Origin: Clytia hemisphaerica
Lineage: Eukaryota > Cnidaria > Hydrozoa > Leptothecata > Clytiidae
Reading direction: 5' to 3'
DNA length: 64,000 bases
Assembly (NCBI GenBank): GCA_902728285.1
Contig: CACVBU010000534.1
Coordinates: 1,313,939 to 1,377,938, forward strand
The notes beneath the pieces were generated by a model. The model was not told the DNA's origin, did not search any database, and worked only from the letters and a program-made list of their open reading frames with translations. Position numbers and translations under genes: made by a program. This document shows, in pieces, positions 10,249 through 63,712 of the stretch (its first letter is position 1; every line of letters starts with the position of its first letter).

Positions 10249-10261
10249 ATCTGGTGGAGGG

Positions 10262-35300: not shown

Positions 35301-38300
35301 TGTTTTAGTTGTCAACTTCAGTTGAGCTACAATCTGACAATGTCTGTCTGTGTGAGTGTGTGTCTGTCTGTCTGTCTGTCATAAAAACTTTAGGGCAGCC
35401 TGGAGACTTCAAAAATGGTCGGATTTGGCTGAAATTTGGCACACTTGTTCCTTGGGTGAATATCCGGGGTTTTTTTTTTCATTTTTTGAAAATATTGACT
35501 TTTGGGGCCTGGGGACGAGTTTTTCGCCAAAACGAGGCTAAAACTTTGGGACCGCCTGGAGACTTAAAAAATGGTCGGATTTTTCTGAAATTTGGCACAC
35601 TTGTTCCTTAGGTGAATATCTGGGGTGTTTTTTACATTGAGTTTCAAGCCCGAAGGGCTAGAGGTCAATCTCTAACCTTTCTCAGGCAAGAAAAATTGAA
35701 GCCTTAAAATATGCGCCATATTTTTGATAACGGATTGAATCTAGCAATTCCTTTGTTTTCGAGTGATATATTTTTCGAAATTAAGCGGTAAATTTTAGTT
35801 TCAATCTGTCATTTGTGTAAAAACCTGGCGGGTCGCTCAAGGCCGCGCAACTTTGGTAGGATTTGTTGGCTTCAAATCCTACCAAAGAGATTGACCTCTA
35901 GCCCTTCGGGCTTGAAACTCAATGGTTTTTTATCATTTTTTGAAAATTTTGATTTTTGGGGCCTGGGGAAGAGTTTTTCGTCAAAACGAGGCTAGGGGCA
36001 GCCTGGAGACTTCAAAAATGGTCGGATTTGGCTGAAATTTTGCACACTTGTTCCTTGGGTGAATATCTGGTGAATATTTTGATTTTTGGGGCCTGGGCTG
36101 CCTGGGGACGAGTTTTTCGCCAAAACGAGACTAAAACTTTGGGGCAGCCTGGAGACTTCAAAAATTGTTTGATTTGGCTGAACTTTTGCACACTTGTTCC
36201 TTGGGTGAATATCTGGTCTACAATTGGACCTATGAATAATTTGAAGCCACTGAAGTTGAGCCCAGTGCGTTGCGCACTTTCGACTATTTTCAAATGATCT
36301 TTAGGTCAAATAGAAAAGGGATTGATATCCACGAAATGAGCCAAGATTTTTTTTCATTGTCTTTAAACTAATTGAGTATCAATACCAAGGCAAGATTACC
36401 TAATATTACCATGATATTCAAGCTCACTGCATTTTGGTTCAATTATAAATAATCAATATATAGTGTTAGATTTTACAACAATCCATAAGACCCTCACATT
36501 TTTTTTATTTTCTTTCTTTAGCGTTTGCTGATAGCCAGAGAATTCAACGACAAAGCAGCCGAACGACGTGCCTTCAGCAATCTTGGTAACGCACACGTGT
36601 TCTTAGGGGAGTTTGAAATCGCTGTCGAATATTATAAGTAAGTAGTGTCTTTTTCATTATAGAATTCACACTTCTGCTTCCGACTTTAAGGGAAGAAATT
36701 TTCGCGGAATTTAATTTCGCGGTTGAGAGGATTTTTTGTTTAAAATATGGCCTATTTTGCCCTAAAAAGACCAATTTTATAGGTGATTTTTTAAATCATG
36801 AGAATATTTCTGTTTCGCGGAATTTAATTTCGAGGATTTGTTGAAAAACCGCGAAAATTTGTTCCCTTGGATGGGTGTTTTTCATATCTCTGGGACCAGC
36901 GGAATACATAAAATGACTTTTCTTTTCTTGTTCGCCTAGTTAAGAAGTCGCCCGAAATTTATATTTCTCCATCATTGATGGTGTTTTGAAATTAACCAAA
37001 AAGTCTAGGGCAGAATTTCAAAATTCTTTTTGTATTCCCTCTGGTATTGGTTATCGGAACGTGAAAACGATTTCAGGACATCTACCTTCGCTTTGCACAA
37101 GATTCCACTTCCCAAACTAAGATTCTACTGTCACTTTTCCGGGATAACTGACATTAAGATTCTACTGTCACTTCTCTATCGGAAACAAAAACTCCGGGTA
37201 GTTGAAAAATGAGCTTCGGAAAGTTAGGCAGTTTCGTAATTAGACCTGAGTAAACACATGATTTTTCGTACCTCTAGAAAAAAAACCATTTCTTATCTCA
37301 TGCTGGTTAACCCGAGAAAAATAGCGGGAAAAAATCCCGAAAAAAACTTAGTGAGTGAGCTGGAGTCTTTTGTGAAACGACTGTACCAGCTGCTAGTCTA
37401 ATGATTAAAATTAAAGGGATGATCTTGCAACGGATTCATGTTTTGACTTGATCAATGTACAATTTCAATGATTCGTTCCCTTTTTTTATAGAAAAACAAG
37501 AGATCTTGCAAAGGAGCTGAACGACAAAGCAATAGAAGCACAGGTACCGTCATACACGCTTTTTGTTATAAGAATGGTGTAAATCCATTTCATCATGGTC
37601 TTAATTTTTTTGGGAAAATCATCCTAAAATATTCTTACAGCATTCTTAGGTTAGGATCCTAATTCAGACTAGATTTAACATTTAGTACATACGTCTCAAG
37701 CATAAAATGGTATTTTTATGAAAAGGAGTGAGCCTTACTTGGGGGCAATTAGCAATTTATAATTGAAAATGGCATTCTTAGCTTGTTCTTAGCTTGAGTA
37801 GCAAAATTCCATGATGGTGATGTTCTTAGCATTATTCTTAATTTTTTGGCCATTTTCATCATGGACATATTCTTATAGAAAAAAAGCGTGTACACGCTTT
37901 TTTTTTTATAAGAATGGTGTTTTTTCATTTCATCATGAATATTCTTAACTTTTTGGCGAAAATCATCCAAAAATATTCTTACGGTATTCTTAGGTTAAGA
38001 TCGAAATTGGCAATCTACAGGTTAAAATGCATTAAAAATGGCATTCTTAAATTCAGTTGTTAAATTCCATGGTGGTGATATTCTTACAATATTCTTAATT
38101 TTTTGGCCATTTTCATCATAGACATTCTTATAAAGTGTATTCTTATAAAAAAAAAGCGTGTAGTCCGTATAAAAAACCCTTGCCTGGAAGCTTATTGTTT
38201 TAACTTTTTGTTGGCTTTTTCCTTTGTTAATATCAAAAGATAAAAATCGATTTGCTCAGTTTTTTTATCACGTTACCAAGTAATCCTTTTGGGATTGGTT

Positions 38301-41300
38301 TAAGATTTAATCACGTGATCAAAAAGTGAACAAAACAAACTAATTTCTCAACGCAAGTTCAAAAGTTTAAATAAGAAAGAAAAGAAACAAAAGACTTCCA
38401 GGAAGCCTATGATAACGCTACTCTTCTTAAGTTTAAAAAACAACTTGATTATTGTTGACATTATACTCTCCATCCAATCCCTCAAAATATAAACAGATTA
38501 ATGAGAGAAGGCTATATGTATTGGAACAACATATTTTCGTCATTAATAAAGAATGGCTAAACTTTTCAGCTTAAAGAGGGGAAAGGTGAAATTTACGTAA
38601 GGGAGCAACGACATTATCTCACATTAAAATCTAATTGTTTTTTTCAATCACCATACAGGGGGGTGGACGAACATTTCCAGTAGGTAATCCAAGAAAAATT
38701 TCCAGGAGGTATTTTCTCATTTTTCCAAGGGGTTAAAAAGTTGTTCAAAATTTGCAAGGGGTAAAAGACTAGTCTAGTTCGTCCGCCCTCACTTTAAGGG
38801 ATGAAAAGGTTCGGCCACCCCCCCCCCCTGTATGGTTTTTTAATGGAATAGCCCATTATCATCAAGCTAGTTTCTTTAAGATGTTGTCACCAATAGCCAA
38901 TACTTATCATCTCACGTTTACAGGCATGTTACAGTCTTGGCAATACATACACCTTACTGAAGAAATACAGCTCAGCAGTTGAATATCATAAAGAACATTT
39001 ATCCTTTGCACAAGAACTAGAAGACAGGTATTGATTTATATACACTTTTTTGACCGTAGTCGCGCGGACAGGCGCGTGTCATTTTATTATTTACTGTGAT
39101 TATCCCCTTAAACTAGATCCAGTCTTTTTGATACCTTTTTCTTTTGTACTTATATGTGTGGGAAAAAAGACTGATAAGAGTTTAGGGTGGTACACAGACC
39201 AAAAAGTGCCCGCGCGACAATCGGCGGCTACGGTCGAAAGCATAATGTCTTGAACATAAACAAACTTTATCCCTACTCTATTACAAAAACATCAATAATA
39301 TAATTAAAAGTTAATAAAACGAAATAATTTCTTGAGTATTTTTTACCAATTTCATAAGAAATCTGTTGAGTCCGTAAAGCCTTAAACTGTTCTTAGCTTG
39401 TTCTCAATATTTTTGCTTTCGCCTTAGCTTTATGTTCTTAGATAGTTTGTTTTTATAAAATAAACGTGTAGTGAGGGATGCAGGAGATTATCTAAGATTC
39501 AGACGTGTTAATCTGAATGACCTATGTCACTATCAAAAGCTTTTCTCACAACAAAATTATGATATGTTATGTCTTTAGGGATTATTGAAAACAAATATGT
39601 TTGTTTTACTGAGATTAACAGTTTGATGTGATATGTCGTGTAGACAGGTTTTTTATGAGAAAAGATTATATTAGAACAATAGGCTTCGTTTGCCAAAATA
39701 TTAAGAACAAGTTAAGAACATTTTAAGGTTTGGCTGACTTTAAAACACCTGATTCCTAAGGAATACTCATAAAATGGTGAAAATAAAATCGTGTTAAGAA
39801 AATTTCTAGGCTTAAAACTCAATAAGTTTTGGATGTTCTTATAAAAAACGTGTACCGTGGTGTAGCCTCTGACGTTTTGAATTTTTGAAATGTCCTAATT
39901 AAGGTTTATATCCTTCCTAACCTTTCAACTAACTTATTTGCAAACAAGATAAAGTCTGTTTTGATGTTTGTAATTTTTTCTAAATCACGGAAAGCTGTAC
40001 AACTTGATGAGACCAAGTAGGGATATTTTCAAAATAATCTCAAATCACTTTTGACAGTTTTTGACAGAAAAGGAGTGAGCCTTACTTGGGGGCAATTAGC
40101 AATTTATAATTGAAAATGGCATTCTTAGCTTGAGTAGCAAAATTCCATGATGGTGATGTTCTTAGCATTATTCTTAATTTTTTGGCCATTTTCATCATGG
40201 ACATATTCTTATATAAAAAAACCCTTGCCTGGAAGCTTATTGTTTTAACTTTTTGTTGGCTTTTTCCTTTGTTAATATCAAAAGATAAAAATCGATTTGC
40301 TCAGTTTTTTGATCACGTTACCAAGTACTCCTCTTGAGATTGATATAAGATTTAATCACATGATCAATAAGTGAACAAAACAAATTAATTTCTCAACGCA
40401 AGTTCAAAAGTTTAAATAATAAAGAAAAGAAAGAAAAGACTTCCAGGAAGCCGCCTATGATAACGCTACTCTTCTTAAGTTTAAAAAACAACTTGATTAT
40501 TGTTGATGTTATACTCTCCATCCAATCCCTCAAAATATAAACAGATTAATGAGAGAAGGCTATATGTATTGGAACAACATATTTTCGTCATTAATAAAGA
40601 ATGGCTAAACTTTTCAGCTTAAAGATAAAGTCTGTTTTGATGTTTGTAATTTTTTCTAAATCACGGAAAGCTGTACAACTTGATGAGACCAAGTAGGGAT
40701 ATTTTCAAAATAATCTCAAATCACTTCTGACAGTTTTGTTTTGGTGTTTGCTCCAGAATTTAGGGTGTTAAATCGCTTTCTTATTAGTAGGGGGGGGGGA
40801 GATCCCTTATGATCCTTAGCATCTCTCGTTGGATGTAACTGCATGTGATTGACTCGAACGTGGATATGATTTTTTTCTCTTTTTTTTTTTTGGGGGGGGG
40901 GGTGCGAATAAGGCCTCTCAAAAGTTTTTGTGGCTAAATAAGGCAGTAGCCAAATCTCCTAACCCCCAAAATGAATAAAAATTCACGATTTTCAAAAGTC
41001 GAATTCAAGAAAAGTGATTGGTACCATCGGCTAGAGCATGAAATTCTGAGCAAAAAAGTATACTGCAACAAGTCTTATACTCAAACACACCGTTACGTTT
41101 AAGACAAGTTTGACATCAATCGTACTATAACTGACAGAATTTTGAACTGTAAAAGCCTGTATTTATTAATGTGTTCGATTAGACTTAGTATACCATTTGT
41201 TTTGGAGTCCGCCGCATTGCCTTGTTCTTCATATTGTGGCCACGGAAGCCTTACGTTCTTATATATACTGCTAATGCTTTAAATAAAGATTAATTAACTT

Positions 41301-44300
41301 CAAAGTCTAAAATTTAATTTTACAAAGTAGGTGTTTTAGCAATTATGGTTGCTCATTTAAAGTTCATACACCCTGATGTGTAATACAGTATTAGGCATCA
41401 TCTGAATTTAAATGCACATCGGTAAACAAACAAGTTATAGACATTATTCAGGGTATGGAAAGGTGTGTAGGTGGAGAATGTTGATTGTCAACATACAGCT
41501 TTTTTAAAGGACGTCCAAAGCTTCGAATGTTTTAAACTTTCTTAGTTTTAAGCCTAAAAATTTCTGTCTATTCAGAAGCAGCCACCGACCTAAAATTCGC
41601 AAATATCTGTTCTGATTTGCCAGCTGGAAGGATTTCCACGAAATTAAGAACAGTTCCTCGTTTTCCAGGGGAGAAATTTTTACTTCAGAACAGTTATATT
41701 TTTCCAGCTAGGAGGTAAAAAAACTTTCAGAACAGATACGAAATTACCAGGCGATTGATTTTACGCGAGTTAACTGTTCTTATCTACCAGGGCTGACAAA
41801 ATCTTATAATAAATCTAATAAATCCAGATGTTTTGTAGAACAGATGGAGAATTTTCAGCTGCCACTCCAGGCAACCACATTCAGGACTTTTTGGAAATTC
41901 CCTCAGAACAGATAGGAAATTCTTAGACACCTTATTTATAAATATAAGATATCAAACTATTTTTCTCATAAGAACAGATCATATTTTTCCATCTGGTCCA
42001 AATCTTCAGTAGAACAGACCACTTTTTTTCAGCAGACTTTTTTCTTTAGTTCACTAAGAACAGACCGCCATATCCAGCTGGAACGTGCCTTCAGAACAGA
42101 TATTTTGAAGTCCCCCTTCGGTGGATGCTTTCGTCTATTTATGTTTGTCTATTTTCCTAGGGGTTGGGTTTTAGAGTCCGTAAAGCCTCAAAACGTTCTT
42201 AATTTGTTCTTAATGTCTTGCCCATATCGAAGCCCTATGTTCTTAAATAGTTTGTTCTTATAAAAGACAATTCAAAGTCAGGTTATGGGAAGTTATGTGG
42301 GTGGAGAGAGTTGATTTTGTACCTATAACTCGGTTATATAGCTCTTTCTACCAAAGGTTCTGATTCCTTTATATCCATCTTTCTATAATTTTTAAGTATT
42401 GAAGTTGGTATTTCTTAAAGACAAAAATAGAAATTTATTACAATGGATGTGGGTGGTTTTAATATTGGCCCATTTATATATTTGTAGAACCTTTATTGCA
42501 TGAATTTGTTTTTCTCACGGGAACTTATAATACATCTTATTTAAATGAGGATCAAATTTAGATTGTTGTGCTCTGTCCGTGTTGTTGGAACCTTCAATGC
42601 CTTGATTTATTTTCACTTTGCTTTATAGGATAACTTACATTGGCCTTGATTATCTTTTTAGGGTTGGTGAAGGTCGAGCTTACTGGAGCTTGGGAAACGC
42701 ATTGACAGCAATCGGTCAACACAAGGAAGCTTTATCATTTGCAATGCAACATCTTCTCATATCCAAAGAGGTTCGTTGTCACTGAGATTTTTATATTCAT
42801 GAGTGCAATATCTTCTAACATTACATCACGGACCCAACATTATATTTTATTTTACGTTAACTACAACCAATCAGCTGTTGGATCTATAGTGTGATTTCGA
42901 AGAAATTGCAGTGATGCATATCATGAATGAAACACTAGATAAAGCTACAACTCTGTATTTTTATTATTGGATCTTGGATCAGTTTTCTTGAATATTTTAA
43001 CAAGGGGTCAACAACTATACTATGTGCTCCCGCTAGTTCAAACTTCTATTGTTCGAATCTTTCTATAATTTGAATTTTAGATTTTTAGTTCCCGTCAAGA
43101 ATAAACCTTCCTAAAATACTTTATGTAATTCGAATCTTACTGTAGTTCGAACAAATTAAAATTCCACATTCGAGCTAGAATTAGCGAGAGTCAACTGTAG
43201 TTAAGAAATAATATATTTTACGGAGAGATCTGTTATGAAAACATGGATTTTACAAATGAATTTGTACTTGCCGGTAACTTTAAACTTTCATAACTTTACC
43301 GAATTAAGTTTGTTGTCGAAATAAAATTATCAACAATGATGTTATCTTCGTCTTCGGAGGTTTAGAAAAATGTCTGGTTTTATAGTCTTATCAATATTAT
43401 TTGTAATACTCTTTTCTTTAAAAAATTACGGGTGGGGTTTGAAAAATTGCCTAAGCTACAGGATGTCAGAGTGTCTTTCTCCCTTTTTTAGTGGTAGGCT
43501 AGTAGGGGCTAGAGATTGCAGAAATTCCCGCAACAAAATATTAAATGTTTTAGTGATGTGGTTGAAATAAATGATATAATTGACCCTAAAAACAACGAAG
43601 TTTTCATATGTTAAACGCCATAACAACAACAGATTTTGATGAGTTGGTCTACTCGTAGCTCTCCTACATTCCCGAAAGTGGAGGGGAGTTTAGATAATCT
43701 AGGCTGGATTGTAAGGAATGCGGTGAGGTTTTTTCTGGCGATGGCTGAAATCCTTTAAAAAGTTAAAAAGTTAATTTTTTCTCCCCCTACCCCAAGGTTC
43801 TTTTTTAACCAAAGACATCAATTTGTTTTAAGGACTCTGAAATCTATCTAATTCATGAAAGTTCGAGTTGTCGATAAAACTATTTTTGCTACGAGGATTT
43901 GACAGATCATTAACAAAGTGTTAGAGATTGGAATTAACTTTATTTTAATTCGAGTATTACTTTGGGAGATGTGAAATATATGCGTTGAGTGTTTATTAAA
44001 GAACTGCTTCGTCAATTTTTTTTGAAATTTGTTTACATACCAGTGCCGAAAGAAGCATTTTGATATTAGGAAGAATAAAGTCATGTGACACCGGGGGCTA
44101 ATGAGACTGAAAATCACTCCAATCTATTCTTTCCAGAACTGTCAAATGTTTAGAATAATAATTTTTGTATTATTTTGTAGGTTGGTGACAGAACAGGTGA
44201 ATTGACAGCTGAAATGAACATCTCTGACCTTCGTGCTGTGCTCGGCGTTGACCGAAGGTACAAAGAATACACAGGTTGCAAAATAAAAAGTCTGAAGACA

Positions 44301-47300
44301 AATCACGCTTTTACTTGAAACTTTTATGTGATTGTTACATGAGATTTATTTATGATTGGTTCGAACAGGTTCGAATTTATTGACACTTATAAAGTTATCA
44401 GCTGTAGGTTGTAAAGCAAGTAACATGGAAACAAAATCACGTGAACTTTTTCGAGTAAACACATGTTTTGACTGCACCTGATATAATTTTGCAGCCCATG
44501 TATTGACTGTCTTTCATTGAACTATTCCATTCTGTGCAAAGCACGCTCTATAAAGCGATATGGTGAATGAACGATCTGACCTATTTGTTCAGCTAAAACA
44601 GTCAAAACTTCGTTGCCCTTTTGTTTGAAAGTGAAAGCGACTGGGTTCTAATGTTTAATTTATAGTTAGCGGTTTATTTTATTTTGGTGTTTCGCTTTAG
44701 CCAGAATAGACGATATCGGCTTAACATGAAAACTCAGATTTGATCCCCGAGAATTCCCCACAATGCTTTGCGTGGAAAAAAGTTCGCAGTGAAATATTTT
44801 CCGCGCAAAGCATTGTGGGGAATTCTCGGGGATCAAATCTGAGTTTTCATGTTAAGCCGATGTCGTCTATTACCGCACTAAAAACCTCATTTTACATTTA
44901 CTCTTCATCTGGATGATAAAGATCAAAGTGGTGATCCAACCTGGGCAGATTCTCTTAGGGGTAACCTTTAGAGTTTATACGTGTCATGCTCTCATGCACA
45001 GAGTAATCAGAATCTACTTGGAGATTCATCTTTAAAACAATTACAAACTAAAAGCCAACCTCCCTGCATATTAGTATCCATAGTAAAGTAGTAAATCCTC
45101 TGCGTTCATCTTCGTCAAAAAAAATTGTAAAAGCATTGAAGTAAGGATTAAAGAAGAAAGGCATCAGCTGGTTGATTGAAGGTTGATTCTGTTTTTTCTT
45201 TAATTACGAAACACCGTGTTGCTCTTTTGGTATACTATAGTTAGAGATTTTTTAAAAAGAATTGCGAGAAGATAGAAAAAAATAAATTTATTATAATTTA
45301 CTATAAATTAATTCTTTGCAGGTGATTGCCCTTTTCATTACCTTTAAATTATATAGACTACGTGGAAAATTTCTTTAAAAAAATCCAAGTGACCTGTCTT
45401 TTAGGTCAATCAGTTGGTTGGTTTTTTTATTCTTCATTTTGGATATATTTCCTTTCTTTTTTTAGCGCTGAAGCATCAAATGCGATGAGCTCTGGAGAAG
45501 TCCAAAAGTTGTTTGGATCACGTAAGCTAATATATTATACTTCATTTATACAATAATTTCCTGGGAATGTAAGGTCAGACAGGCTTTTGATTTATTGAGA
45601 TCTGATTCTTAGATTTTTAAGATCCTATAATCTGTTGATCAAAATTCAATCAATTTCATTTTTCGTAGAATCTGTATAAGCTTATATACATAACACTCAC
45701 CCATAACGACATTTACATAAATGTTTTTTTCTCGGAACGTAAAAAGTCTCTATAATAATATTTAGTTCATGGAAAATTTGTTCCTTCTAAGTCAGGTGCT
45801 CTACCTCTGTTCAGGACTTTCCAGAGGCCTCGCTCTTCTCCGTCAAAGTTAGTCATGGTAGTAATAAAAAACTTGTCTCTTATGAGAACAGAACTGGGAT
45901 TGTTTGATATTGAACAAAATAAGAATACGTTAAAGTGGATTCATTTTGGCCGGGATTAAATTTGGCGGGATTAAATTTGGCGAATTTGGCGAATTTAACA
46001 AAACAAATTACAACTTTTTAGTATGTTTTATAGTAATTTTCACTCATTTCAGTGTCTCAAAATTTCCAATTCACCAAATTAAATACCCGCCAAGTTTTAC
46101 GAATTTGCTCTATCACCAGATTAAATCCCCACCAAAAATTGTATTTTCGCCAGCCAAAATTAATCCACTTAAGGTAGTACCCAAAGCCCAAAGTTATTGG
46201 TGATTATTTTTAGTCATCATAATCAATCTTAAATGAATCTGTTTTATTTTTATCTAAATTTTCAATTATAAATTGATACACCCAACCCACAGTTTCCATG
46301 TAAATGGTAACCGAAAACACACGGAGCCTCATTGCTACTGCTCCTTTTCCTTTCTCCTCTCGTGTTGCGAAATGACCTTTTTTCTTTCCCAACCAACCTT
46401 CTTTCAACATGTTTAGTAACGAAGGATCTCAGCTTGGGAAAGTGGGAACTATAGAATCCCAGAAGCCTATTAATAAACTTCTTTTTCTGTTGTTTCTGTG
46501 GGGGAGGTTATGCAAGCGATTTGTTAACTGAGAAAAAAAGCGAAAGAGATATTCTCTTGAAACCATGTTTTTGTTTTTGTGGGATTCTCTGATTGCTTGC
46601 TTGTAAATATGCGGCCTACACCCTTAAAAGTGATACGAGAATGATTGTCAACTTTCGACCAAATCAAAAGCACATTAACCTCCTTAAACCTGGAAGGCTT
46701 AGATGCCCTTAGATGAGTAATTTCTTCTACGTGAGTAGTAAGTTTTTATCTTTAAATCAAAAGATGTTCAGGTCAGCTTTTCTTAGAATCAAATTCTAAT
46801 AAAAAAGATACAAATCTTTTGTCTGATCCATCGAATCAATTATTCAGTAGTTTTTAACCCTATGTTTCGAAAAACCGCAATTTATCTATGTCTCTCATCT
46901 TCTTTTTCTTCTTCATTCTTCATTCTTCATTCTTCTATACAAGTGTTGTTTGAGGGGAAAATAACGTTTATATACTTAATTGAAACAACCAAAGTTTAAC
47001 AGTTATAAACAGACTTGATTGAGTGCGGAGTTCAAGGAGAAACTATTCCTTTATCTTCATCACACAGTCTGAAATCGAATTACCGTCAGAACTGGTCTAA
47101 TTGATAAGATTTAGAATCGTTACCTAAATACAATCGTAAAAACACAAACTTGGTAAACAATGGGTGTGTTATTGCAAGCTAAACATAAAAACAAAGTGAG
47201 TTTTTATTTCAAATTTTCTTCTTTTTTTTTTCTTTTAGGACCTGGAAATGTGGTAAGTTGGATGCTTCAGTTTTTTTTCTCTTGATATCTGTAATATCCC

Positions 47301-50234
47301 CTTGTCTCGCTCAACAAAGCTTAAAAAGGCTTGACGAAAGCTTTTCATCGGTGTGTCTATATCTCTAAAAAGTTTTTTTTGGCGTAAATGGGCCATCCAT
47401 ACAGGAGGAGTCTAAAAAGAATGTTTTTTTCATTTTTCCAGTGGGTAAAAGACTGATTTTAGTCCGTCCAGCGTCGTATTAAGATATGAAAAGAACCTTT
47501 TCATTGTTGCAAAATTTTGTCATTTTCCAGGGGGGTATCCATACATTTTTATGAATCTTTTTTTTTTTACTTGAAAGGGTTCGTCCACCCCTCTGTATGG
47601 AAATTTAATGTAATGGCCCAATGATCATAACACATAACAGCCTGACCTTTATTATATTTTGTATTTTTTTTTTTGCTGAAATTAATACTGTTTTCTTCTT
47701 CTTTTTTCAGCCTGTTACCGATTCAAATGATATCACCTTGAATGTCAATGGGCATAAAGTAAGTTTAACCAGCCAATATGTATATGTCACTTTATACTTT
47801 GTGCTAGCCAAAACCAATAACAGTGCTCATGTTAATGATAACAGAGCTTTATACTAATTTGAGTAAGGAAAACGATTTAGTTTAATTTCACACTCAAAGT
47901 TTCATTTCCATCCAAGATGGCAATCTTCAGTGATTCAGTGATTCGAACTAATATGTCATTTTATACCAAACTGTTGCCGCTATCCATCATTAAGTCATTG
48001 TAAAGGAAATACAATTTGTTATAACTTTTCAAAGATTTTAATCTTATCAAATCTTTACTTCTAGCGTCGAAACAGTTACGAGGGACGAGGTGACGGCCCT
48101 GGAGAAGACTTTTTGGATATGTTATTGAAATCCCAGGGTTCACGACTCGACGACCAGCGAGTAGACTTCCCCAAACAACGTGTATCAAGCACCAATGGCA
48201 CAAGGCCATCAAAAACAAAATCATCTACCAAAAACTCTAAAAAGAATTCCAGTAAAAAACAATCGGCCAAACCCGAACACAGTAAGGAGGGTTTTATGGA
48301 TCTAGTTGCTAGGCTACAAGGCGATCGTATGGATGAGCAAAGATGCTCGTTACCAGAGCTACCAGGACTTGTAACAGAAGGTATTTTATTAAATTATTCT
48401 ATTTTGGGATCCTAAAAAAGTTCCGCAAAATATTAAATTATTTAAAATGAATTTCAATGACCAAGACCGTTAGTCGAAATTATTTATGAGATTAAAAGTA
48501 AATAAATTTATTAACCTAGTAACTTAGGCAACATCACCTTTTACTTAGGACAAAAATAAGATGTTTCCTGTGCCACACTTAAGTAGTTCTAGGGTCATTC
48601 GAAAACCTGACCTACTTCTGTGGCCCGATCTTATGGCCTTCCCTATGGCCTACCTTATGGCCCACTTCCGAAAATGTGGAAACAATTCTAAGGTTGGCCT
48701 TTGTTTTGAGACTAAAATAAGTTTGAGTCTGCATTTTATACACCTGATTTTGCGTGCTTTTGAATCCTTGTAATTTGATTGACATAATGAAGAGATGTCA
48801 GTAATTTGATTGACATAATGAAGAAATGTCAGTAATTTGATTGACATAATAAAGAGATGTCAGTAATTTGATTGACATAATAAAGAGATTTTAGTAATTT
48901 GATTGACATAATGAAGAGAGAATCATAACACAATGAGAACACCCGTTGCCGTCAGATGCTAAAGGTCGCTGTTAAGCATCTTCGGGTCGTGATAGTACTT
49001 GGATTGGGGACCGCCTGGGATCTCCCGGTGTTATGGGAGCATTAAGATTGATTGAATTGATTGAGCAGAAAGTTTTAATCTTATTTCAATGATTCTACGC
49101 CCAGTTTAGGTAATGAGTTTTAAGGATTTCACCTCAAATAAAAATTTGTAGCTTTTTTTTTTGGGACACACTGTATTTTCTATACATGTTTTTTTTATAA
49201 GCAAATGTCTGTCCCTATATAATGTAATAATATGATTAGCCTTCTCTTGTTCTCAAAAAATAGAGCTATTGTTTCGGTACCAAAAAGTGAGCCTGCATAT
49301 GCTTTTAAACGTTATGCTTGTGAAAGAAAAAACATGTATAATTCTTACATTTTGTTATTAATTTTAGCAAAAAAGAAGCTAATTGAGAACCAGAAACAAC
49401 AACAACAGCAAAAACCGAACCAAGAAGTTCCTGATGATGCTTTCCTTGACATGCTCATGAGGTGTCAGGTAAGTTCATTGTTACACGTTTTTTATATAAG
49501 AACAAACTATATAAGAACATAAGGCTTCGATTGCCAAAATGTTAAGAACAAGTTAAGAACATTTTAAGGCTTTGGAGACTCAAAAAGACCTATCTACTTA
49601 GGAAATCGCATAAAAATACTCACAAAATGGTGAAAATGACAACATGTTAAGAACATTTTTAGGCTTAAAACTCAAAAAGTTAAGAACATCCGAGGGCTTC
49701 AAAAGTTTTGAATGTTCTTAAAAAAAACATGTAATGTTATAAAAATTTTCCAGTTAATTTCTTTACGTAGCCTAACATGTCTCATTCAACAGTTATGCAA
49801 ACCAAATTTGCTACAAATTTTTTCTAAATATGTGAGTCAGTTCAAGTCCAGTTGAAGACAGTTCCCCTTCCCCAAAAACAATGTTGTTCAAGAGAACGAG
49901 CTGTTGTTGCATCTGGCATTGTGTATTGGGGGAGGGTGATCGGATTTTTTTGGTAGATATTTTGACTGTCGATATTTTGCAAAAGATGTCAGCCTTCTTT
50001 CTTCTTCGCAGTTTGCAAAGATTATCAGACAACCTTTTAACACAGATATGTTAACCGATATAACCTCTCCTTGTTTAGGCATCTCGTATCAACGATCAAC
50101 GAGTAGAATTCCCTCCTATCCCGCGCGGTCCGACCGTTCCCGATGAAGATTTCTTCAACTTGATCGCACGACTTCAATCGAAGAGAATCGATACACAACG
50201 AGTGAGCTTTGATACGAGGAAATATAGTTGCTGA
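29370..50234 (+). CDS. GPSM2/LGN/Pins: TPR-GoLoco spindle-orientation protein, 14 exons
   Basis: Exons: 29,370-29,750; 30,243-30,385; 31,325-31,448; 36,522-36,637; 37,492-37,543; 38,924-39,027; 42,662-42,770; 44,181-44,257; 45,466-45,521; 47,239-47,252; 47,711-47,758; 48,065-48,380; 49,368-49,468; 50,079-50,234. All phases agree over 1,797 nt, or 598 residues, close to known Pins/LGN lengths. Residues 1 to about 370 form eight TPRs with the LGN signatures (QLGNAYFYL, NLGNTLKVLG, NLGNVYHAKG, NLGNTHYLLG, SLGNTYTLL). A linker follows with RRNS at 409-412, resembling the phosphorylated RRxS site of Pins/LGN. Four GoLoco motifs bind Galpha(i)-GDP (about 422-441, 483-502, 537-556, 569-589), ending DDQR, DEQR, NDQR and DTQR. 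In animals the protein links cortical Galpha(i) to NuMA/Mud and dynein at mitotic spindle poles. The start MAASLSAQDV follows an ACAG, so a 5' untranslated exon is possible. The introns are full of MITEs. Confidence 0.95.
30618..30917. mobile_element. Intronic MITE, CCATACAGGGGGTGGACGAA family
   Basis: TCCATTTAAAATCCATACAT followed by GGGGTGGACGAA at the left is mirrored by a degenerate TCCTCCACTCTCTGTATAGG and AAATGGAATGG at the right. CCCCTGGAAAA words recur inside. Relatives are at 38,651-38,855 and 47,388-47,614. It lies in GPSM2 intron 2. Confidence 0.6.
31987..32257 (+). mobile_element. GTTCTTA-word element with a TACACG end (intron 3)
   Basis: The right end TTCTTATAAAAAACGTGTA is intact and the left TACACTTCTTTTCATAAG is degenerate. 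GTTCTTA recurs about eight times between them. The body shares GAGTCC(G/A)(T/C)AAAG and TTATGTT(C/A)T words with the copies at 39,043-39,471 and 49,484-49,731 (inverted). Confidence 0.65.
32474..32660. repeat. Old interspersed repeat shared with the ISXO2-like gene intron
   Basis: Roughly 150 bp resembling 8,598-8,760: GA(A)TTGACATAGATGT, AGCAA, TTTGTTTATATCAGC and a following GCAGACACTG..CTGATATGAAA align with spaced matches. It is too diverged to classify and lies in GPSM2 intron 3. Confidence 0.45.
33835..34545. repeat. CCGGTG word cluster in GPSM2 intron 3
   Basis: ATTCCGGTGCAG at about 33,839, two TCCGGTGT at about 34,448, and ACACCGGAATGTCCGGTGTA at about 34,510 resemble the arrays in the hAT-like element at 20,305-23,335. 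I found no clear ends, so a decayed relative is only suggested. Confidence 0.35.
35340..35380 (+). repeat. TCTG microsatellite
   Basis: Interrupted (GTCT)n/(TG)n run, directly preceding the longer tandem repeat. Confidence 0.85.
35384..36215 (+). repeat. Tandem repeat of ~155-bp units, interrupted by a MITE
   Basis: Four units contain CAGCCTGGAGACTTCAAAAA, CACACTTGTTCCTTGGGTGA, GGGGCCTGGGGACGAG and TTTTTCGCCAAAACGAGGCT. The second is split by the 290-bp MITE at 35,635-35,924, and the last is partial. Open frames through it arise from the repeat and have no recognisable protein. It lies in GPSM2 intron 3. Confidence 0.85.
35635..35924. mobile_element. 290-bp MITE (AAGCCCGAAGGGCTAGA family), copy 1, 8-bp TSD
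   Basis: Terminal inverted repeat CATTGAGTTTCAAGCCCGAA continues through GGGCTAGAGGTCAATCTCT. An exact 8-bp duplication GTTTTTTA flanks it (35,627-35,634 and 35,925-35,932), typical of hAT-derived MITEs. The insertion split a tandem repeat unit. The same family is at 58,904-59,193 and 58,381-58,602. Confidence 0.92.
36688..36868. mobile_element. TTCGCGG-word MITE in GPSM2 intron 4
   Basis: AAGGGAAGAAATTTTCGCGG at the left is mirrored by CCGCGAAAATTTGTTCCCTT at the right. TTTCGCGG(A/T) and GGAATTTAATTTCG recur inside. It starts about 50 nt after the exon 4 donor. Confidence 0.75.
37555..37890. mobile_element. TACACGC element A, 12 nt into GPSM2 intron 5
   Basis: Left CACGCTTTTTGTTATAAGAA and right TTCTTATAGAAAAAAAGCGTG are inverted, with TA outside each (37,553-37,554 and 37,891-37,892). 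ATTCTTA words recur inside. The right TA is shared with the next element. The left end lies only 11 nt after the exon 5 donor. Confidence 0.8.
37893..38160. mobile_element. TACACGC element B, abutting element A
   Basis: CACGCTTTTTTTTTTATAAG and its complement end the element. TA at 37,891-37,892 (shared with element A) and 38,161-38,162. GGTATTCTTA, CATTCTTA and AATTTTTTGGCCATTTTCAT are also in element A, so the two are sisters. Confidence 0.82.
38651..38855. mobile_element. CCATACAGGGGGGTGGACGA MITE in GPSM2 intron 5
   Basis: CCATACAGGGGGGTGGACGA at the left; GGCCACCCCCCCCCCTGTATGG and TTAATGGAATAGCCC at the right. AAGGGGTAAAAGACTAGT is shared with the copies at 30,618 and 47,388. The left outer end is degenerate. 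Confidence 0.65.
39043..39471 (+). mobile_element. GTTCTTA-word element, 16 nt into GPSM2 intron 6
   Basis: The right end TTTTTATAAAATAAACGTG is followed by TA. The left end CACTTTTTTGACCG after TA is a diverged terminus. The right 120 bp match the family (GAGTCCGTAAAGCCTTAAAC, TTATGTTCTTAGATAGTTTG). The left 300 bp are unlike other copies and may be a separate insertion, so the left end is uncertain. Confidence 0.5.
39640..39854 (-). mobile_element. GTTCTTA-word element in GPSM2 intron 6
   Basis: The right terminus TTCTTATAAAAAACGTGTA is intact and the left TGTAGACAGGTTTTTTATGAG is degenerate. AAGAACA/GTTCTTA words and CTTCGTTTGCCAAAATATTA link it to the 49,484 element. Confidence 0.6.
39946..40738 (+). 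repeat. Intron 5 segment copied into intron 6 between direct repeats
   Basis: 40,069-40,624 is a close copy of intron 5 sequence 37,721-38,577, lacking 37,877-38,166 (which holds element B) and an 11-bp piece. It is bracketed by a direct repeat of about 116 bp (39,946-40,061 and 40,622-40,737). This looks like a recent duplicative insertion within one gene. Confidence 0.88.
41571..42132. mobile_element. TCAGAACAGA-word element in GPSM2 intron 6
   Basis: TTCAGAAGCAGCCACCGA and AATATCTGTTCTGA at the left are mirrored by TCAGAACAGATATT and CGGTGGATGCTTTCG at the right. The word AGAACAG/CTGTTCT occurs about a dozen times in 560 bp. A GTCTA repeat flanks both ends and may be the target duplication. 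Confidence 0.75.
42140..42262 (+). mobile_element. Fragment of a GTTCTTA-word element
   Basis: GAGTCCGTAAAGCCTCAAAA, GTTCTTAATTTGTTCTTAAT and GTTTGTTCTTATAAAAGAC match the right half of the copies at 39,043 and 31,987. The end is degenerate. Confidence 0.55.
42795..42928. mobile_element. Relative of the 29,087 MITE, GPSM2 intron 7
   Basis: ATTCATGAGTGCAATATCTT at the left and GCAGTGATGCATATCATGAAT at the right, with CGGACCCAACA and CAATCAGCTGTTGGAT inside, match the MITE upstream of the gene. It begins 25 nt into the intron. Confidence 0.75.
43023..43197. mobile_element. pogo/Tigger-like MITE with TTCGAA words, GPSM2 intron 7
   Basis: The right end read inward is CAGTTGACTCTCGCTAATTC, followed outside by TA. 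The left end CTCCCGCTAGTTC is a diverged partner. TTCGAA(T/C) recurs five times. The CAGTTGA start and TA target are typical of pogo/Tigger elements. Confidence 0.65.
44705..44871. mobile_element. 167-bp near-perfect hairpin in GPSM2 intron 8
   Basis: Arms of about 68 bp (from AATAGACGATATCGGCTTAA to GCTTTGCG) pair with one visible mismatch around a 31-nt loop. No target duplication can be assigned beyond a possible single base. It is probably a palindromic MITE. Confidence 0.85.
45934..46169. mobile_element. 236-bp MITE with AATTTGGCG words and TAA duplication, GPSM2 intron 9
   Basis: AGTGGATTCATTTTGGC and GCCAAAATTAATCCACT end the element. TAA flanks both sides (45,931-45,933 and 46,170-46,172), fitting PIF/Harbinger. 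GGGATTAAATTTGGCG recurs at the left and TAAAT(A/C)CCC(G/A)CCAA at the right. Confidence 0.8.
46906..46937 (+). repeat. CTTCATT microsatellite
   Basis: Short run of TTCTTCATTC units in GPSM2 intron 9. Confidence 0.8.
47388..47614. mobile_element. CCATACAG MITE in GPSM2 intron 10
   Basis: AATGGGCCATCCATACAG at the left is mirrored by CTGTATGGAAATTTAATGTA and ATGGCCCAA at the right. TTTTCCAGTGGGTAAAAGAC and TCCAGGGGGGTATCC are shared with the copies at 30,618 and 38,651. Confidence 0.7.
48770..48920 (+). repeat. 31-bp minisatellite, five units
   Basis: Units of GTAATTTGATTGACATAATG plus AAGAGATGTCA, starting at 48,770, 48,801, 48,832, 48,863 and 48,894, with few substitutions. It lies in GPSM2 intron 12. 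Confidence 0.92.
49185..49336. mobile_element. 152-bp TACATG-end element, 31 nt before GPSM2 exon 13
   Basis: CATGTTTTTTTTATAAGCAA and TGCTTGTGAAAGAAAAAACATG form the ends, with TA outside both (49,183-49,184 and 49,337-49,338). It belongs with 15,883-16,130 by its ATAAGC words. It must lie very close to the branch-point region of the next acceptor. Confidence 0.75.
49484..49731 (-). mobile_element. AAGAAC-word element, 16 nt into GPSM2 intron 13
   Basis: CACGTTTTTTATATAAGAAC and GTTCTTAAAAAAAACATG end the element, with TA outside both (49,482-49,483 and 49,732-49,733). AAGAAC occurs about seven times. The body is the reverse complement of the 31,987 and 39,043 copies. Confidence 0.82.
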
Positions 50235-50981: not shown

Positions 50982-51111
50982 ATCTTTCCATTTGAAAGAG
51001 GCTAGATTGATTTATTGTTGCGAATCTTAAAGCGTTCTTTCCCAATACATAGTTAACTCTTGTGATTAGTTAGATTTTCTGAACAGTTTTCATTGGTAAT
51101 GCCAACATGCT

Positions 51112-51520: not shown

Positions 51521-51795
51521 TGGGCTATTCCAGAAAAAGTTTGTACCCCCTTTATTGGGGAGGTCTTTTTTATTTTTCAGGAGCCCCTTGGATTTTTTTA
51601 TCCCATTGTTTTGGACCACCCTGGATTTTTGACCTAGTTATGCTAACCACCCTGGATTTTCAACCCGATTTTACTGACCAACCTGGATTTTTTCATTCAA
51701 AAAACCAATCCAACCTGGATTTTTTATTTTCCAAACCACCTTGTACGTCACACATCCTTCACATAGGGGTTACAGACTATTTCTGGAATAGCCCA
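51521..51795. mobile_element. MITE with TGGGCTATTCCAGAAA ends and CCTGGATTTT tandem units
   Basis: TGGGCTATTCCAGAAA and TTTCTGGAATAGCCCA are the inverted ends. About five units of CCA(C/A)CCTGGATTTTT lie in tandem inside. The ends resemble the TGGGC(C/T)ATT termini of the CCATACAG family. The open frame through it is repeat-derived. Confidence 0.78.
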
Positions 51796-52689: not shown

Positions 52690-55285
52690 TAAATTGCTGA
52701 AGGCCAATTGCATTGACACTTATTGATAATATCTTTTCCTCAATTTCTGAAAAACACAGTTTTTCAGGTAATCTGCTTTATTCCATCTCTGATCATCTTC
52801 CCCAATTTCACCTTATCTGTGGTTCTTCTAACAAACCAAAGCCTGGTAAATCTTCTAGGAAAGATTGGAAAAATTTTGACCAAAATAATTTTATTCTAGA
52901 CTTTCTTGGCACTGATTGGGCAAACAAATTATATCACATAACAGATGTTGATCAAGCTTTCAAAACATTCTATGATCTAATTCAAAACCTAATTGATCAA
53001 CATGTTCCAACTGTAATTGTGACAAAACGCCAACAAAAAACCAGAGCTAAACCATGGATCACCCCTGGGATTATCAAATCAATTTCTCAACGTCAATTTT
53101 ACTCAAGGAAATATATCAAAACCAAAGACCCAATTATGAAAACTTTTTATTATCAACGATACAAAACTTACAAAAACCTCATAGTTACTCTTACACGTAA
53201 GAGCAAAAATAATCATTATTCCAGGTTTTTTCTCTGTCCATGCTACTAATATTTTGAAAGTCTGGGAAGGTATCAGAGAGATCATTGGCTCAAATTCTAA
53301 TCATCATCTCCCTCGTCTATTCGTGTTAATGGTCATCTTACCTCAGATCCAAAGTTGTTGCCAATGGCTTCAATAACTTTTTTACATCATTGCAGAGGGA
53401 CTGCGCCGTCCAAAATTGGTCCAACCAACCATCACTTTTCCCATTATCTTAAGAACCGCATCAGAAATTCTATTTTTCTTGACCGTGTCAACCCAGCTGA
53501 AGTTTTATTAATTATTAAATCCCTTCCCCTAAATAAATCATCTGGTCCCAATAGCATCCCCCAAAAAATCCTTCGCCTTTTAAAATTTGACCTTTCTGGA
53601 CCGCTATCTTTTCTTTTTAACCTTTCTTTTGAATGTGGTTCTTTCCCCACAATGCTTAAACTTTGCAAAGTAATTCCTGTTTTCAAAAACAAAGGCTCCC
53701 CTCTTGAGATCTCTAATTACCGCCCGATTTCTTTACTTTCCAACATCGAAAAAATTCGTGAAAACTTATGTACTCTCGTATCATTACTTTTCTAGATTCT
53801 CATCGCGTATTTTTTGAACGTCAATTTGGTTTTCGTAGATCTCACTCAACAATCCACACTTTGCTTAACATTGTTGAACGTATTCGTAAATCTCTTGATA
53901 GTGGTGACTTTGCATGCGGTGTGTTTGTTGATTTGCAAAAGGCTTTTGACACTGTTGATCACTCTATTCTGATTTCAAAATTAAATCATTATGGAATCAG
54001 AGGCAAAGCTAATGAATGGTTTAGATCGTATCTATCCAATAGATCTCAGTTTGTTTCCATCTCCTCCACTGAGTCTTCTATTAAAATAATTCCTCATGGA
54101 GTTCCACAAGGCTCTGTTCTTGGACCCCTTTTATTTTTTAATTTATAGAAACGATCTTCACAATGCCATCTTTCAGTGAAAACTTTTCATTTTGCTGATG
54201 ATACCCACCTCTTACATTTTAACCCTGATCTGCTTTCATTATGCAACAGAGTCAATCGTGACTTGAGATCCCTCCAAACATGGTTGAAAGCGAATAAAAA
54301 TTTCCCTTAATGCGGGGAAAACAGAATTTTTAATCTTTAGACATTGTCGCAAACCTCTTCCTTCATCCCTTTTTCTTAAAATCGGAGGTAAGAAAATCTT
54401 TCAAAGCTCCCATAGCAAATATCTTGGTATTTTTGATTGATTCGCATCTCAATTGGAAAGCTCACACTACTTTTTTGTCAGCCAAACTTGCTCGAGCAAA
54501 TGGTATCTTATCTAAGCTCAGGCACTACGTTCCAACAAAAACTCTAGTTAACATCATCTACTTCGCTCTATTTCACTCTCATCTCCAATATGGTTGTCAG
54601 CTCTGGGGCCTCACTGAAAACACCACATCCAAACCTATATTTATTCTTCAAAAGAAAGCCTTACGTCTCATGACTTTTTAATTCCTTTCAATGTCCTTCT
54701 TCTCCGCTCTTTTCTGATCTTAAAATTCTTAAAATCTTTGACCTAGTCAAATCTCTTAATATTTCATTTGTTCACAAATTCTTGAACAATAGATTACCCC
54801 AAGATCTTCTTAATTTTTTTGAATTTGTTCAGCTTGAAGCTGAAGGTGACGATAATCAAGGTACCAGAGGAGCAAGATTGAAGCTCCTTTTTGTTCCTTC
54901 CTACAATACCATTACTTTTGGTAACAAATCTTTTTCTAAAATCTGCATAATACAATGGAATAGTATTCAGCGATCTTATCCAAATATTACTCTGAGCTCA
55001 TCTGATTCTAGCTTTGTCAAATCTCTTGCCTTTACTCACTGTCTTAGGGAATACTGAGCACACTCCCTACCCACAGCTTATCTTTAATCCGTAAATAAAC
55101 AAAAATTTTCAAATTAATCTACTGAAATAATTTATGTATTTTACAATTGTTACTTGCACTTAGGTGGCCGCATCTTTATGATTAGTCCAGGCTATAAGGC
55201 GGTCTCCATCCTTTTTTATTTTGTGGATACCGTCTCTCATGTATTTTAAGTGTTCAAATGGTAAATAAATAGTTACTTACTTACT
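52690..55285 (+). pseudogene. Decayed, 5'-truncated non-LTR retrotransposon (CR1/L2/Jockey-like)
   Basis: Broken frames run from the end of an APE-type endonuclease (IDNIFSS and ISDHLPQF at about 52,716-52,810) through a reverse transcriptase. RT landmarks are NYRPISLL (about 53,717), FVDLQKAFDTVDH (about 53,923), HGVPQGSVLGPLLF (about 54,096) and the FADD catalytic box (about 54,191). The C-terminal region ends with a stop at 55,057. At least four frameshifts or stops break it (near 53,230, 53,760, 54,147 and 54,310). A short 3' untranslated tail ends in TTACTTAC repeats near 55,280, as in CR1/L2-type elements. ORF1 and most of the endonuclease are missing, so it is a dead-on-arrival copy. 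It sits between GPSM2 and ASS1. Confidence 0.9.
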
Positions 55286-55995
55286 TGCATTTATTTCAAC
55301 CCCCCCCCAATTGAAAATCACTGCAATCTACGTCATTATGAGTCAGCTTAATTTTCGAGGGCATCATTGTACAAGCTGATTAAAGGTTTGATACAAGGTG
55401 AATATTCAAGGTTCTGAGGCAAGTTTTATTTTGAGTTGAACAGGTTAATTCAAACTTTTCTCAGCTTGACTCCAAATATACAAATAATTGACTGAAAAAG
55501 TTCCTATTTTCAAATTTTTCCATTTTTCATTTTTTTCTTTAGCTTAGAAATAGCCCACACTTTTCGCAGATGAAAATTTCTGATAAGATATAAATTTTTC
55601 AAAATAAGAGGGACAGATTTCTTTTTATTTATCGAAGTCCCAGCATGATGTTTTAGAATTCTTTTATTTGCCACATGTCAAAAAGCGATAAATTTTGGGT
55701 GAACAGTTTTTAAGACTTTTTGAAACTTTTTCGTCTATTTTTCCACCCAGTGTTCATTCTCTATTCGTCCTATTATAAGGCTTTATTTTTTCATGATAAA
55801 AAATTCATGTTTCTAGAGTAGAGGGCTTATCGAACTCAATCAGACTTCTGGATTAGTTTTTTAATTATTGTGACTTGTTTTATAAGGAGTGGTCTCTGTT
55901 TTGACTTCAATTATTTTTATCTTGTCTTGGAATCTAATCCTCCACGGCTCGAGGAAAAGAGATTATGCTGCTTCCAAATGCATTTGTCTGACCTA
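55286..55995. other. Intergenic DNA without a gene
   Basis: No exon or clear repeat before the TACACA-end element. Confidence 0.35.
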
Positions 55996-56379
55996 CACAT
56001 TTTTTATAAGGAACACGTTTATAAGGAACTAGAGGTTGAAAATGATCCGAAAAATAAGGAATTGTTAAGTAACTGCTCAGGCCTGCTCAGGCTGAGAATA
56101 AGAAAAACAAGTTAAGGAACAGCGAGTTCTTGAACTTGCAAACATTTACAAAAGCCTAAACAAAAAGATGACAAAATATTATTGATGAAACAACATTACA
56201 TCTTATCATTTCATAAACATCTTTGTCTGTGCTTTAGTCCATTTTAATACTTAGCAAATCGAATCTTAGCAGCTAAGTATATAAGGAACTCGATAAGGAA
56301 CTTTGAGACTGAAATTCTCTGGAAAAATAAGGAACTCTCCAGGCTCGGAGCCAAGTTAAGGTTCCTTATTAAAAACGTG
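55996..56379. mobile_element. 384-bp TACACA/TACACG element with AAGGAAC words
   Basis: CACATTTTTTATAAGGAAC at the left and GTTCCTTATTAAAAACGTG at the right are inverted, with TA outside both (55,994-55,995 and 56,380-56,381). AAGGAAC or AAGGAA occurs about nine times. It is built like the AAGAAC elements, but the repeated word has one extra G. Confidence 0.78.
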
Positions 56380-56840
56380 TATTCCCTTTCTTTGCTCTGG
56401 TAAAAGAAGAATTAAACAAAACTCTGCTCGACTCTTCTTTGCGGGAACCCTAGGCAGTGTTACGTTACGTTGTCATTTTTTTGCTTCCGCATTCCATTCG
56501 CTTTCGAATGTTGTCACTTTAAATTTATTCGAAAAGTAGCACAAATTCGAATTTTTTGCAATTCGAATGTTTTGGGAAAATTTTTCGAATTTTTCGTCAA
56601 AACAAGATCGTGGTGCCAGCCACGTGCATTCTCGAGATGAGTACAGATATAATTGGATGCATTTAGCCTCTAGCAAACTTTTCGAAATCTATTCACAACT
56701 GATGGGCTACTGGACTTAAACTACAGGGGGGACCCATCGAAGCATAAACTAAAGAAATAAAAGTTTGATAACTTTGATACATCTGGGCGAATTGCTAACC
56801 TCCTTTGTTGTTTTCAAACACATGATTTTGATTTCAATAT
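56380..56840. other. Intergenic DNA without a gene
   Basis: TTCGAAT words cluster at 56,505-56,600. Otherwise nothing is recognisable. Confidence 0.35.
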
Positions 56841-57082
56841 TACACCCCTGTCTCACAGCCCGGTGGAATTTTTCTAAATGTGGATAGAAGTTCTTTTGTT
56901 CCAAGGTTAAAAATCTAGTGGGAATGGTTTTGGAGTGCAATAATAAACATTGGATTTCTAGTGGAGATGAAACCAAAGTCAATTTTCCCAGTGGGGCTGA
57001 AATTCCAGTGAATTTTCCCACTGGGGGCGAGATTTTTGCCAAATTTTCCAGTGGGACTGGGGTTCAAATGGGTCTGTGACAC
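56841..57082 (-). mobile_element. CCACTGG-word element, copy 2
   Basis: The TACACCCCTGTCTCACAG start and GGTCTGTGACAC end are the reverse complement of the copy at 11,705-11,975. TTTTCCCAGTGGG, CTAGTGG and CCAGTGGGACTGGGG words recur. Confidence 0.7.
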
Positions 57083-57442
57083 AAGAGTGTGATATTACTG
57101 TTGATGCCTTTGTGATGAGGTAAAGTGAGCTTTAGTATTGAAGTTGTCACACGTTTGGATAAACTACCCTCCCACTAGAAAGTAGAATTCTGCTTAGTAA
57201 TTTAAGATTGCTTCATCACAATCACGTAAACTTCGTTGCATCTTCATTTTAATTAAGTTTTGTTAATTTGATAGTCATGTGCTTATTACTACTATGCAAC
57301 AACTTTGAACTTTGCATCATAACTTCCTCGTATAGTTTATTTATTTCTTACAACTTGCATTTTTCTGTACCAGAGTTCATTTTTTTGCTGAGTCTACAAT
57401 GATATAGAGGTTTGGTGTATTGACGATTATTGATTTGTCACG
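57083..57442. other. Intergenic DNA upstream of ASS1
   Basis: No exon or repeat recognised. Confidence 0.35.
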
Positions 57443-57550
57443 CAGCTGACACATAATGTTGTTTCTACCAGAATGAAGTTTGTTTTAATGTTTATTTAAT
57501 GTTAACAACGTCCATATAAAAATGTTCGTTGAAACAACAATGTCAGACAG
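57443..57550. mobile_element. Small AACGTTG hairpin MITE, diverged copy
   Basis: CAGCTGACACATAATGTTGT at the left and ACAACAATGTCAGACAG at the right, with TAACAACGTCCATATAAAAA inside, match the 58,103 element. It lies about 320 bp upstream of the ASS1 start codon. Confidence 0.6.
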
Positions 57551-57837
57551 ATGAGAAGTAAAAGAGAAGAGGAGTATAAAGAAACTTTTCCGTTTCAAAA
57601 TTCAGCAAACTTTGCAAGAATTTTGGCTTATTTGTTGTGTACAGTACAGTAAAGCCAATTTTCTCACCTGAGACAAGAAACTTTATTTTGGCGACTGGCT
57701 ATTAATACGTTTTTGGAGTTAGTACTACCAGGAAAAATAGTAACATCAAGTTCTTCTAGAGGCGCATTCTGAGACGATTCTTTATATTTGAAATTCAATC
57801 AATTAGATTCATTTTTCTTACATTCTATGTCATCTAG

Positions 57838-63150
<5,313 letters not shown>

Positions 63151-63157
63151 GTTAGTA

Positions 63158-63531
63158 CACGCTTTTTTTTTTATAAGAATAGTGTACTTTGACTGAGGGT
63201 CAAGTATTCTTAAGAAATTGCCAAAATTGAGGGTGAAATATTCTTAACGTATTCTTATTATTTCAGAGAAAAATTTCTTTCCTGGACAGCTTATCTTTCA
63301 TCCATGTTTATTTTCACACGAAACGTAACACACACGAAAGAAAGTACAAAATCTCTTTTGTTAAAATTATCTGTGTCACTTTTGTTTTACCATTTTCTGA
63401 AAAATGACAGTCTTATTCTTATCAATTGACTAAAACTCACCCTGGAGGGTATTCTTAGGGTATTCTTACGATTTGGCCAATTTTCACCCTAATATTCTTA
63501 TAAAAGGTATTCTTATAAAAAAAAAAGCGTG
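63158..63531. mobile_element. 374-bp TACACGC element, 8 nt into ASS1 intron 10
   Basis: CACGCTTTTTTTTTTATAAG and its complement TTCTTATAAAAAAAAAAGCGTG end it, with TA outside both (63,156-63,157 and 63,532-63,533). TATTCTTA words recur inside. It is the best preserved member of the family and begins directly after the 5' splice site of exon 10. Confidence 0.88.
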
Positions 63532-63712
63532 TAGCTCAGTTGTTCAACACTTAATTTTACTTAATTTACAATTGCATTATTTTATTGCAACACCATCGAG
63601 AAACGAAAGGAAACGAAAATATTCTAGGCCTGAAGAAATCTGCTAATTTTCTAAATCCGAGACTGTATTTTTTGAAGGCTTAAATCCCGGACCATACTTC
63701 AATACACCCTCT

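What the first reader, a model, noticed from the sequence alone, without database searches (positions are those of the whole stretch)
37544..63533. One transposon family starts 8-16 nt downstream of four 5' splice sites
Elements with TACACG(C)-T-run-ATAAGAA ends begin at intron nucleotide 12 (37,555, GPSM2 intron 5), 16 (39,043, intron 6, diverged end), 16 (49,484, intron 13) and 8 (63,158, ASS1 intron 10). A fifth relative (49,185-49,336) ends 31 nt before an acceptor. Introns here average over 1 kb, so repeated landing next to donors in two genes is hard to explain by chance. Possibilities are a preference for TA near GTA(A/C) donor contexts, targeting of splice-site chromatin or R-loops, or a role in intron creation or expansion like introners.
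Basis: partly seen in the sequence, partly recalled or inferred. Interest (0 to 1): 0.75.

Follow-up and report, generated by a model that had tools for sequence, protein, structure and literature searches.

The report
Common mobile DNA beside splice donors
A very common short mobile DNA element in this genome sits just after the start of three introns here, and genome-wide it lies in that kind of place roughly two to four times more often than expected, probably through a mild insertion bias and not because it makes introns.

Summary
The elements are real MITEs: median 273 nt over 37 pairs, ends TACACGYTTTTT..TAAGAA, inserted at TA; 18,285 such ends in a 417-Mb genome. All four donors are supported by protein homology. 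Three of four element starts are solid (37,553; 49,482; 63,156); the fourth (39,041) is not recognised by a model of the ends. Genome-wide, GGTAAGT lies 0-30 nt before an end 59 times, against 33, 32 and 27 in equal windows further away (p about 1e-4), 19 for the opposite-strand motif and 36 for a same-composition motif. Where sequence before GGTAAGT also looks coding, the counts are 13 of 55, against 6 of 31, 1 of 32 and 4 of 27. So ends are enriched in the first ~37 intron nucleotides, about 2-fold raw and 3-4-fold for coding-supported donors; TA density may explain part. Spacing inside that zone is flat, so 8-16 nt is not special, and by rough estimate 98-99% of ends lie elsewhere. No sign of intron creation was found. 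Best reading: an ordinary TA-inserting MITE with a mild bias for exon-flanking DNA, plus selection against insertions in exons and at acceptors; the tight cluster in this window is partly luck.

The parts
37553..37892 (.). MITE, 340 nt, in GPSM2-like intron; TA at intron nt 10-11 after donor 37,544
   Evidence: exact termini, pair, end-model 37.7 and 34.1 bits
37891..38162 (.). second MITE, 272 nt, head to tail with the first and sharing its TA
37544..37552 (+). 5' splice site (GTACCG) and the intron bases before the element
   Evidence: frame restored by splicing to 38,924
39028..39052 (+). 5' splice site (GTATTG) followed by TACACTTTTTT; claimed element start, not supported by the end model
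   Evidence: donor; element end: no hit
49183..49338 (.). possible diverged relative with TACATG ends, 30 nt before the acceptor of the exon at 49,369
   Evidence: pair; weak (6.5 and 4.3 bits)
49482..49733 (.). MITE, 252 nt, in a 610-nt GPSM2-like intron; TA at intron nt 14-15 after donor 49,469
63156..63533 (.). MITE, 378 nt, in ASS1-like intron; TA at intron nt 6-7 after donor 63,151
   Evidence: following exon
31986..32257 (.). MITE of the same group, about 540 nt from the nearest upstream donor
   Evidence: end-model 19.1 and 19.2 bits
39643..39854 (.). MITE of the same group with a diverged left end, far from donors
   Evidence: right end exact, left 14.4 bits
55994..56382 (.). MITE of the same group (TAAGGAAC type), outside the two coding regions
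   Evidence: end-model 14.8 and 26.6 bits

Best explanation
These are copies of a very abundant group of MITEs: short, probably non-autonomous, cut-and-paste elements that insert at TA. Shown: shared short inverted ends, TA at both junctions, thousands of copies, and a genome-wide excess of ends in the first ~37 intron nucleotides (about 2-fold raw, 3-4-fold for motifs preceded by coding-like sequence) without fixed spacing. Inferred: a transposase supplied by another element integrates somewhat more readily into TA-rich, accessible DNA flanking the 3' edge of exons. Selection then removes insertions in exons and in the ~30-40 nt that define acceptors, so the donor side is the exon-adjacent place where copies persist. 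The three solid cases in this window are that bias plus the luck of the window that was noticed.
For: Ends, TA junctions and length. Copy number 18,285 ends (backwards-pattern control 1,168). GGTAAGT before the end: 59 at 0-30 nt versus 33, 32, 27 further off (p = 9.6e-5, or 3.9e-4 for 55 versus 31, 32, 27 after removing near-identical loci). Opposite-strand motif: 19 at 0-30 nt, 32 at 100-130 nt, fitting loss from exons. Coding-like sequence up to the motif in 13 of 55 near versus 6 of 31, 1 of 32, 4 of 27 far and 0 of 18 opposite-strand loci. GGTGAGT: 23 near versus 14 far, coding-like 4 of 21 versus 0 of 12. TA is denser just after the 22 window donors (3.2 per 31 nt versus 2.2-2.7). Mammalian TEs within 20 bp of exons sit mainly at donors (PMC3088655, passages).
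Against: A same-composition motif gives 36 at 0-30 nt, which leaves 59 only 1.6-fold higher (p = 0.012). The GGTGAGT count alone is not significant (p = 0.08-0.09). A rank test of coding scores, near against two far windows, gave p = 0.10. Coding-supported 13 versus the adjacent window's 6 gives p = 0.08. In mammals TEs near exons are depleted overall (PMC3088655). No chromatin data, annotation, acceptor-side count or well-powered control repeat family was available; the one control family gave 5 cases.
Confidence: 0.5

Rival explanations
1. Coincidence and composition only. MITEs hit TA sites at random, the first intron nucleotides are richer in TA, and one window with several cases was picked out.
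For: The limits were set post hoc. TA density just after window donors is 1.2-1.5 times that further in (22 donors). Spacing is flat. The same-composition motif gives 36 against 59.
Against: 59 versus 33, 32, 27 genome-wide (p about 1e-4) and coding-supported 13 versus 6, 1, 4 (p = 0.002) exceed a 1.2-1.5-fold density effect, though with wide error.
Confidence: 0.3
2. Active targeting of 5' splice sites. The transposase or its partner recognises donor-associated chromatin, R-loops or splicing factors.
For: The excess is on the donor side and strongest within ~37 nt.
Against: By rough estimate 1-2% of ends are at donors; no preferred spacing; the acceptor side was not measured; no chromatin or R-loop data.
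Confidence: 0.15
3. Introner-like behaviour. The elements create or enlarge introns and supply splice sites.
For: Many introner families carry TIRs and favour nucleosome linkers (PMC9860276, passages), and element starts lie near donors.
Against: The donors lie 5-13 nt outside the element. The introns exceed the elements: 610 nt against 252 at 49,469, and 1,380 nt against 610 for two elements at 37,544. In 30 near-donor loci the only detected coding-supported acceptors (3 loci) lie 345-1,013 nt beyond the far end (low sensitivity).
Confidence: 0.03

Closest known systems
TA-inserting MITEs (Stowaway-like, Tc1/mariner type; recalled)
   Same: Short, TIRs, TA junctions, very high copy number
   Different: Ends read CACGYTTTTT; no autonomous partner was sought by model, so the superfamily is unassigned
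Introners (PMC9860276, passages seen)
   Same: DNA elements with TIRs lying in genes
   Different: Introners recruit or carry splice sites and make up the intron; here donors lie outside and introns are longer
Coral CMITEs (PMC2872659, abstract and passages seen)
   Same: Small MITEs that can form tandem arrays
   Different: CMITEs duplicate TTAA with CC[C/T]T ends; these have TA and CACG ends
Donor-side bias of TEs within 20 bp of mammalian exons (PMC3088655, passages seen)
   Same: Elements closest to exons sit at donors more than at acceptors
   Different: Mammalian TEs are depleted near exons overall; here an excess over distant positions is seen

Membership tests
MITE | Terminal inverted repeats and short length | tested here: met
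   37 pairs, median 273 nt, range 121-1,071
MITE | Very high copy number | tested here: met
   18,285 ends, backwards control 1,168
MITE | No transposase gene; mobilised in trans | not tested
   Length makes a gene unlikely; no reading-frame or partner search was made
Tc1/mariner-type element | TA target duplication | tested here: met
   TA at both junctions; outside flanks agree no further (0 of 37 at 3 nt or more). TA is also read as part of the ends, so no empty site was shown
Tc1/mariner-type element | DDE/D transposase of that superfamily | not tested
   No autonomous copy was searched for by model
Introner | Element supplies or abuts the splice sites and makes up the intron | tested here: not met
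   Three solid window cases: donors 5-13 nt outside and introns longer; 30 loci (low sensitivity)
Introner | Intron absent from relatives that lack the element | not testable with these tools
   The genome has no relatives here
Coral CMITE | TTAA duplication and CC[C/T]T ends | tested here: not met
   Ends are TA-CACG

The most novel reading that the evidence does not exclude
A MITE group whose transposase prefers the donor edge of exons (exon-edge chromatin, R-loops or splicing factors), giving it a safe harbour just downstream of 5' splice sites and a possible first step from MITE to introner.
Probability: 0.15. Interest if true: 0.7.

Novelty: new member of a known kind. Interest (0 to 1): 0.35.

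Why it matters
If the donor-side excess holds in a full annotation, this high-copy group becomes a good system for separating insertion bias from selection in where transposons survive inside genes, and for asking whether MITEs near donors can become introners. It also shows that several near-donor cases in one window do not by themselves prove targeting.

Tried and rejected
Rejected: a special spacing of 8-16 nt. The 59 gaps over 0-30 nt are flat (11, 9, 11, 9, 11, 8 per bin; KS p = 0.88).

Rejected: intron creation.

Tried, little or no result: a second repeat end as control gave 5 cases, too few. The GGTGAGT replicate points the same way but is not significant as a count. A 32-nt element stretch had no exact match in the viral or prokaryote collections, as expected for an animal repeat. 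The GACCGTAG-type sequence beside 39,041 had no exact match in 174 loci. The IS1595-like transposase fragment at 7,906-8,217 was looked at as a possible partner. Inverted repeats around it are weak and none shows TACACG ends. One diverged end of this group does lie beside it, at about 7,786-7,853 (15.4 bits); I take it for a separate remnant.

Counting notes: the end C904:265878 has two GGTAAGT upstream and is counted in both the 0-30 and 31-61 windows. The first codon-model script stopped with an error after saving the model (875 codons from the two window genes); searches used it. In that score 17 of 22 window donors reach 5.5, but most of their exons trained the model, so sensitivity is optimistic. 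The estimate that 1-2% of ends lie at donors is my arithmetic and the share of GGTAAGT among window donors (2 of 22).

Full report
What was checked. Two genes on the + strand carry the finding. One is GPSM2-like (TPR and GoLoco domains), with exons from about 29.4 to 50.2 kb. The other is ASS1-like (argininosuccinate synthase domains), from about 57.9 kb past the window end. The exon after 63,150 was found just past the window. The donors are therefore supported by homology; there is no RNA-seq.

The elements. Nine exact termini TACACG-N-ATAAGAA lie in the window, where shuffles give 0.07 on average. A model built from 124 ends in the window and 79 loci finds paired ends at 37,553/37,892, 37,891/38,162, 49,482/49,733 and 63,156/63,533. 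Weaker pairs lie near 31,986/32,257, 39,643/39,854 and 55,994/56,382. At 39,041 it finds nothing, so the fourth case rests on TACACTTTTTT alone. Over the window and the 79 loci, 37 pairs have a median length of 273 nt, and the flanks agree no further than the TA. Many interiors differ among the ends printed. This is a group of MITE families with shared ends and repeated TAAGAA-like motifs, not one uniform family.

Chance in the window. With nine insertions in 29.4-63.5 kb, at least three starts at intron nucleotides 5-16 have probability 1.6e-4 under random TA sites, or 4.1e-4 with twelve insertions. The limit came from the observation itself and the window was one of many that could have been noticed, so this is a lead and not proof. 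Three other copies (31,986, 39,643 and 55,994) lie far from the donors that I modelled.

Genome-wide counts. TACACGYTTTTT occurs 18,285 times, its backwards control 1,168 times. GGTAAGT lies 0-30 nt before such an end 59 times. Equal windows give 33 (31-61 nt), 32 (100-130 nt) and 27 (300-330 nt). The opposite-strand motif gives 19 at 0-30 nt and 32 at 100-130 nt. A same-composition motif gives 36 at 0-30 nt. The excess at 0-30 nt over the three further windows has p = 9.6e-5, or 3.9e-4 after removing near-identical loci (55 against 31, 32, 27). Against the same-composition motif p is 0.012. GGTGAGT gives 23 near and 14 at 100-130 nt, p = 0.08-0.09.

Are these true donors? I scored 150 nt before each motif with a codon model from the two window genes. 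After removing near-identical loci, coding-like sequence runs up to the motif in 13 of 55 near cases, 6 of 31 at 31-61 nt, 1 of 32 at 100-130 nt, 4 of 27 at 300-330 nt and 0 of 18 opposite-strand cases (p = 0.002 for 13 against 6, 1, 4; p = 0.08 against the adjacent window's 6 alone). For GGTGAGT it is 4 of 21 near and 0 of 12 far. A rank test of near against two far windows gave p = 0.10. On the other strand of the same stretches 3 of 55, 3 of 31, 1 of 32 and 1 of 27 reach that score, so a few supported cases will be false.

Reading. The excess is real at the level of counts but modest: about 2-fold raw and 3- to 4-fold for coding-supported motifs, fading over some tens of nucleotides, with no preferred spacing within 0-30 nt. 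TA is 1.2-1.5 times denser just after the 22 window donors (this count includes the TA of the insertions themselves), so composition explains part. By rough estimate 1-2% of ends lie at donors. The low opposite-strand count at 0-30 nt (19 against 32 further off) fits loss of insertions from exons. In mammals TEs within 20 bp of exons sit mainly at donors, although TEs near exons are depleted overall (PMC3088655, passages). I favour a mild bias for accessible, TA-rich exon-flanking DNA, filtered by selection; the bias step is inferred.

Not introners. Introners recruit or carry splice sites (PMC9860276, passages). Here the donor lies 5-13 nt outside the element and the introns are longer than the elements (610 against 252 nt, and 1,380 against 610 nt). 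In 30 near-donor loci the only detected coding-supported acceptors, in 3 loci, lie 345, 938 and 1,013 nt beyond the far end.

What is open. The superfamily is unassigned; TA suggests Tc1/mariner but no autonomous partner was sought by model. The acceptor side was not measured genome-wide, and the one control repeat had too few cases. Literature searches (several lists were capped) showed no title or abstract start about MITE enrichment at donors. I saw passages of PMC9860276 and PMC3088655 and the abstract and passages of PMC2872659 only.

Noticed in passing
window 9,458-10,395: About 31 head-to-tail copies of a 22-nt repeat.
   Followed up: no
window 13,933-14,582: Large inverted repeat: 221-nt arms 98% complementary, 208 nt apart.
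   Followed up: no
window 7,906-8,217: IS1595-like transposase domain (PF12762, E = 1.2e-7) in what looks like a split gene; a diverged end of the MITE group lies at about 7,786-7,853 (15.4 bits), about 50 nt before the frame begins.
   Followed up: partly
window 37,891-37,892: Two MITEs lie head to tail sharing one TA, as if one had inserted at the other's target duplication.
   Followed up: partly
window 38,171-38,577 and 40,216-40,625: Local duplication, 95-99% identical, that also carries part of the first MITE (37,720-37,885 and 40,067-40,221).
   Followed up: no
window 52,800-55,080: Decayed LINE-like reverse transcriptase, recognised by eye from recalled motifs, not searched.
   Followed up: no
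window 16,776-17,183 (-): ALS2CR8 domain match (PF15299, E = 7.3e-11), so a minus-strand gene probably lies in the first 20 kb.
   Followed up: no
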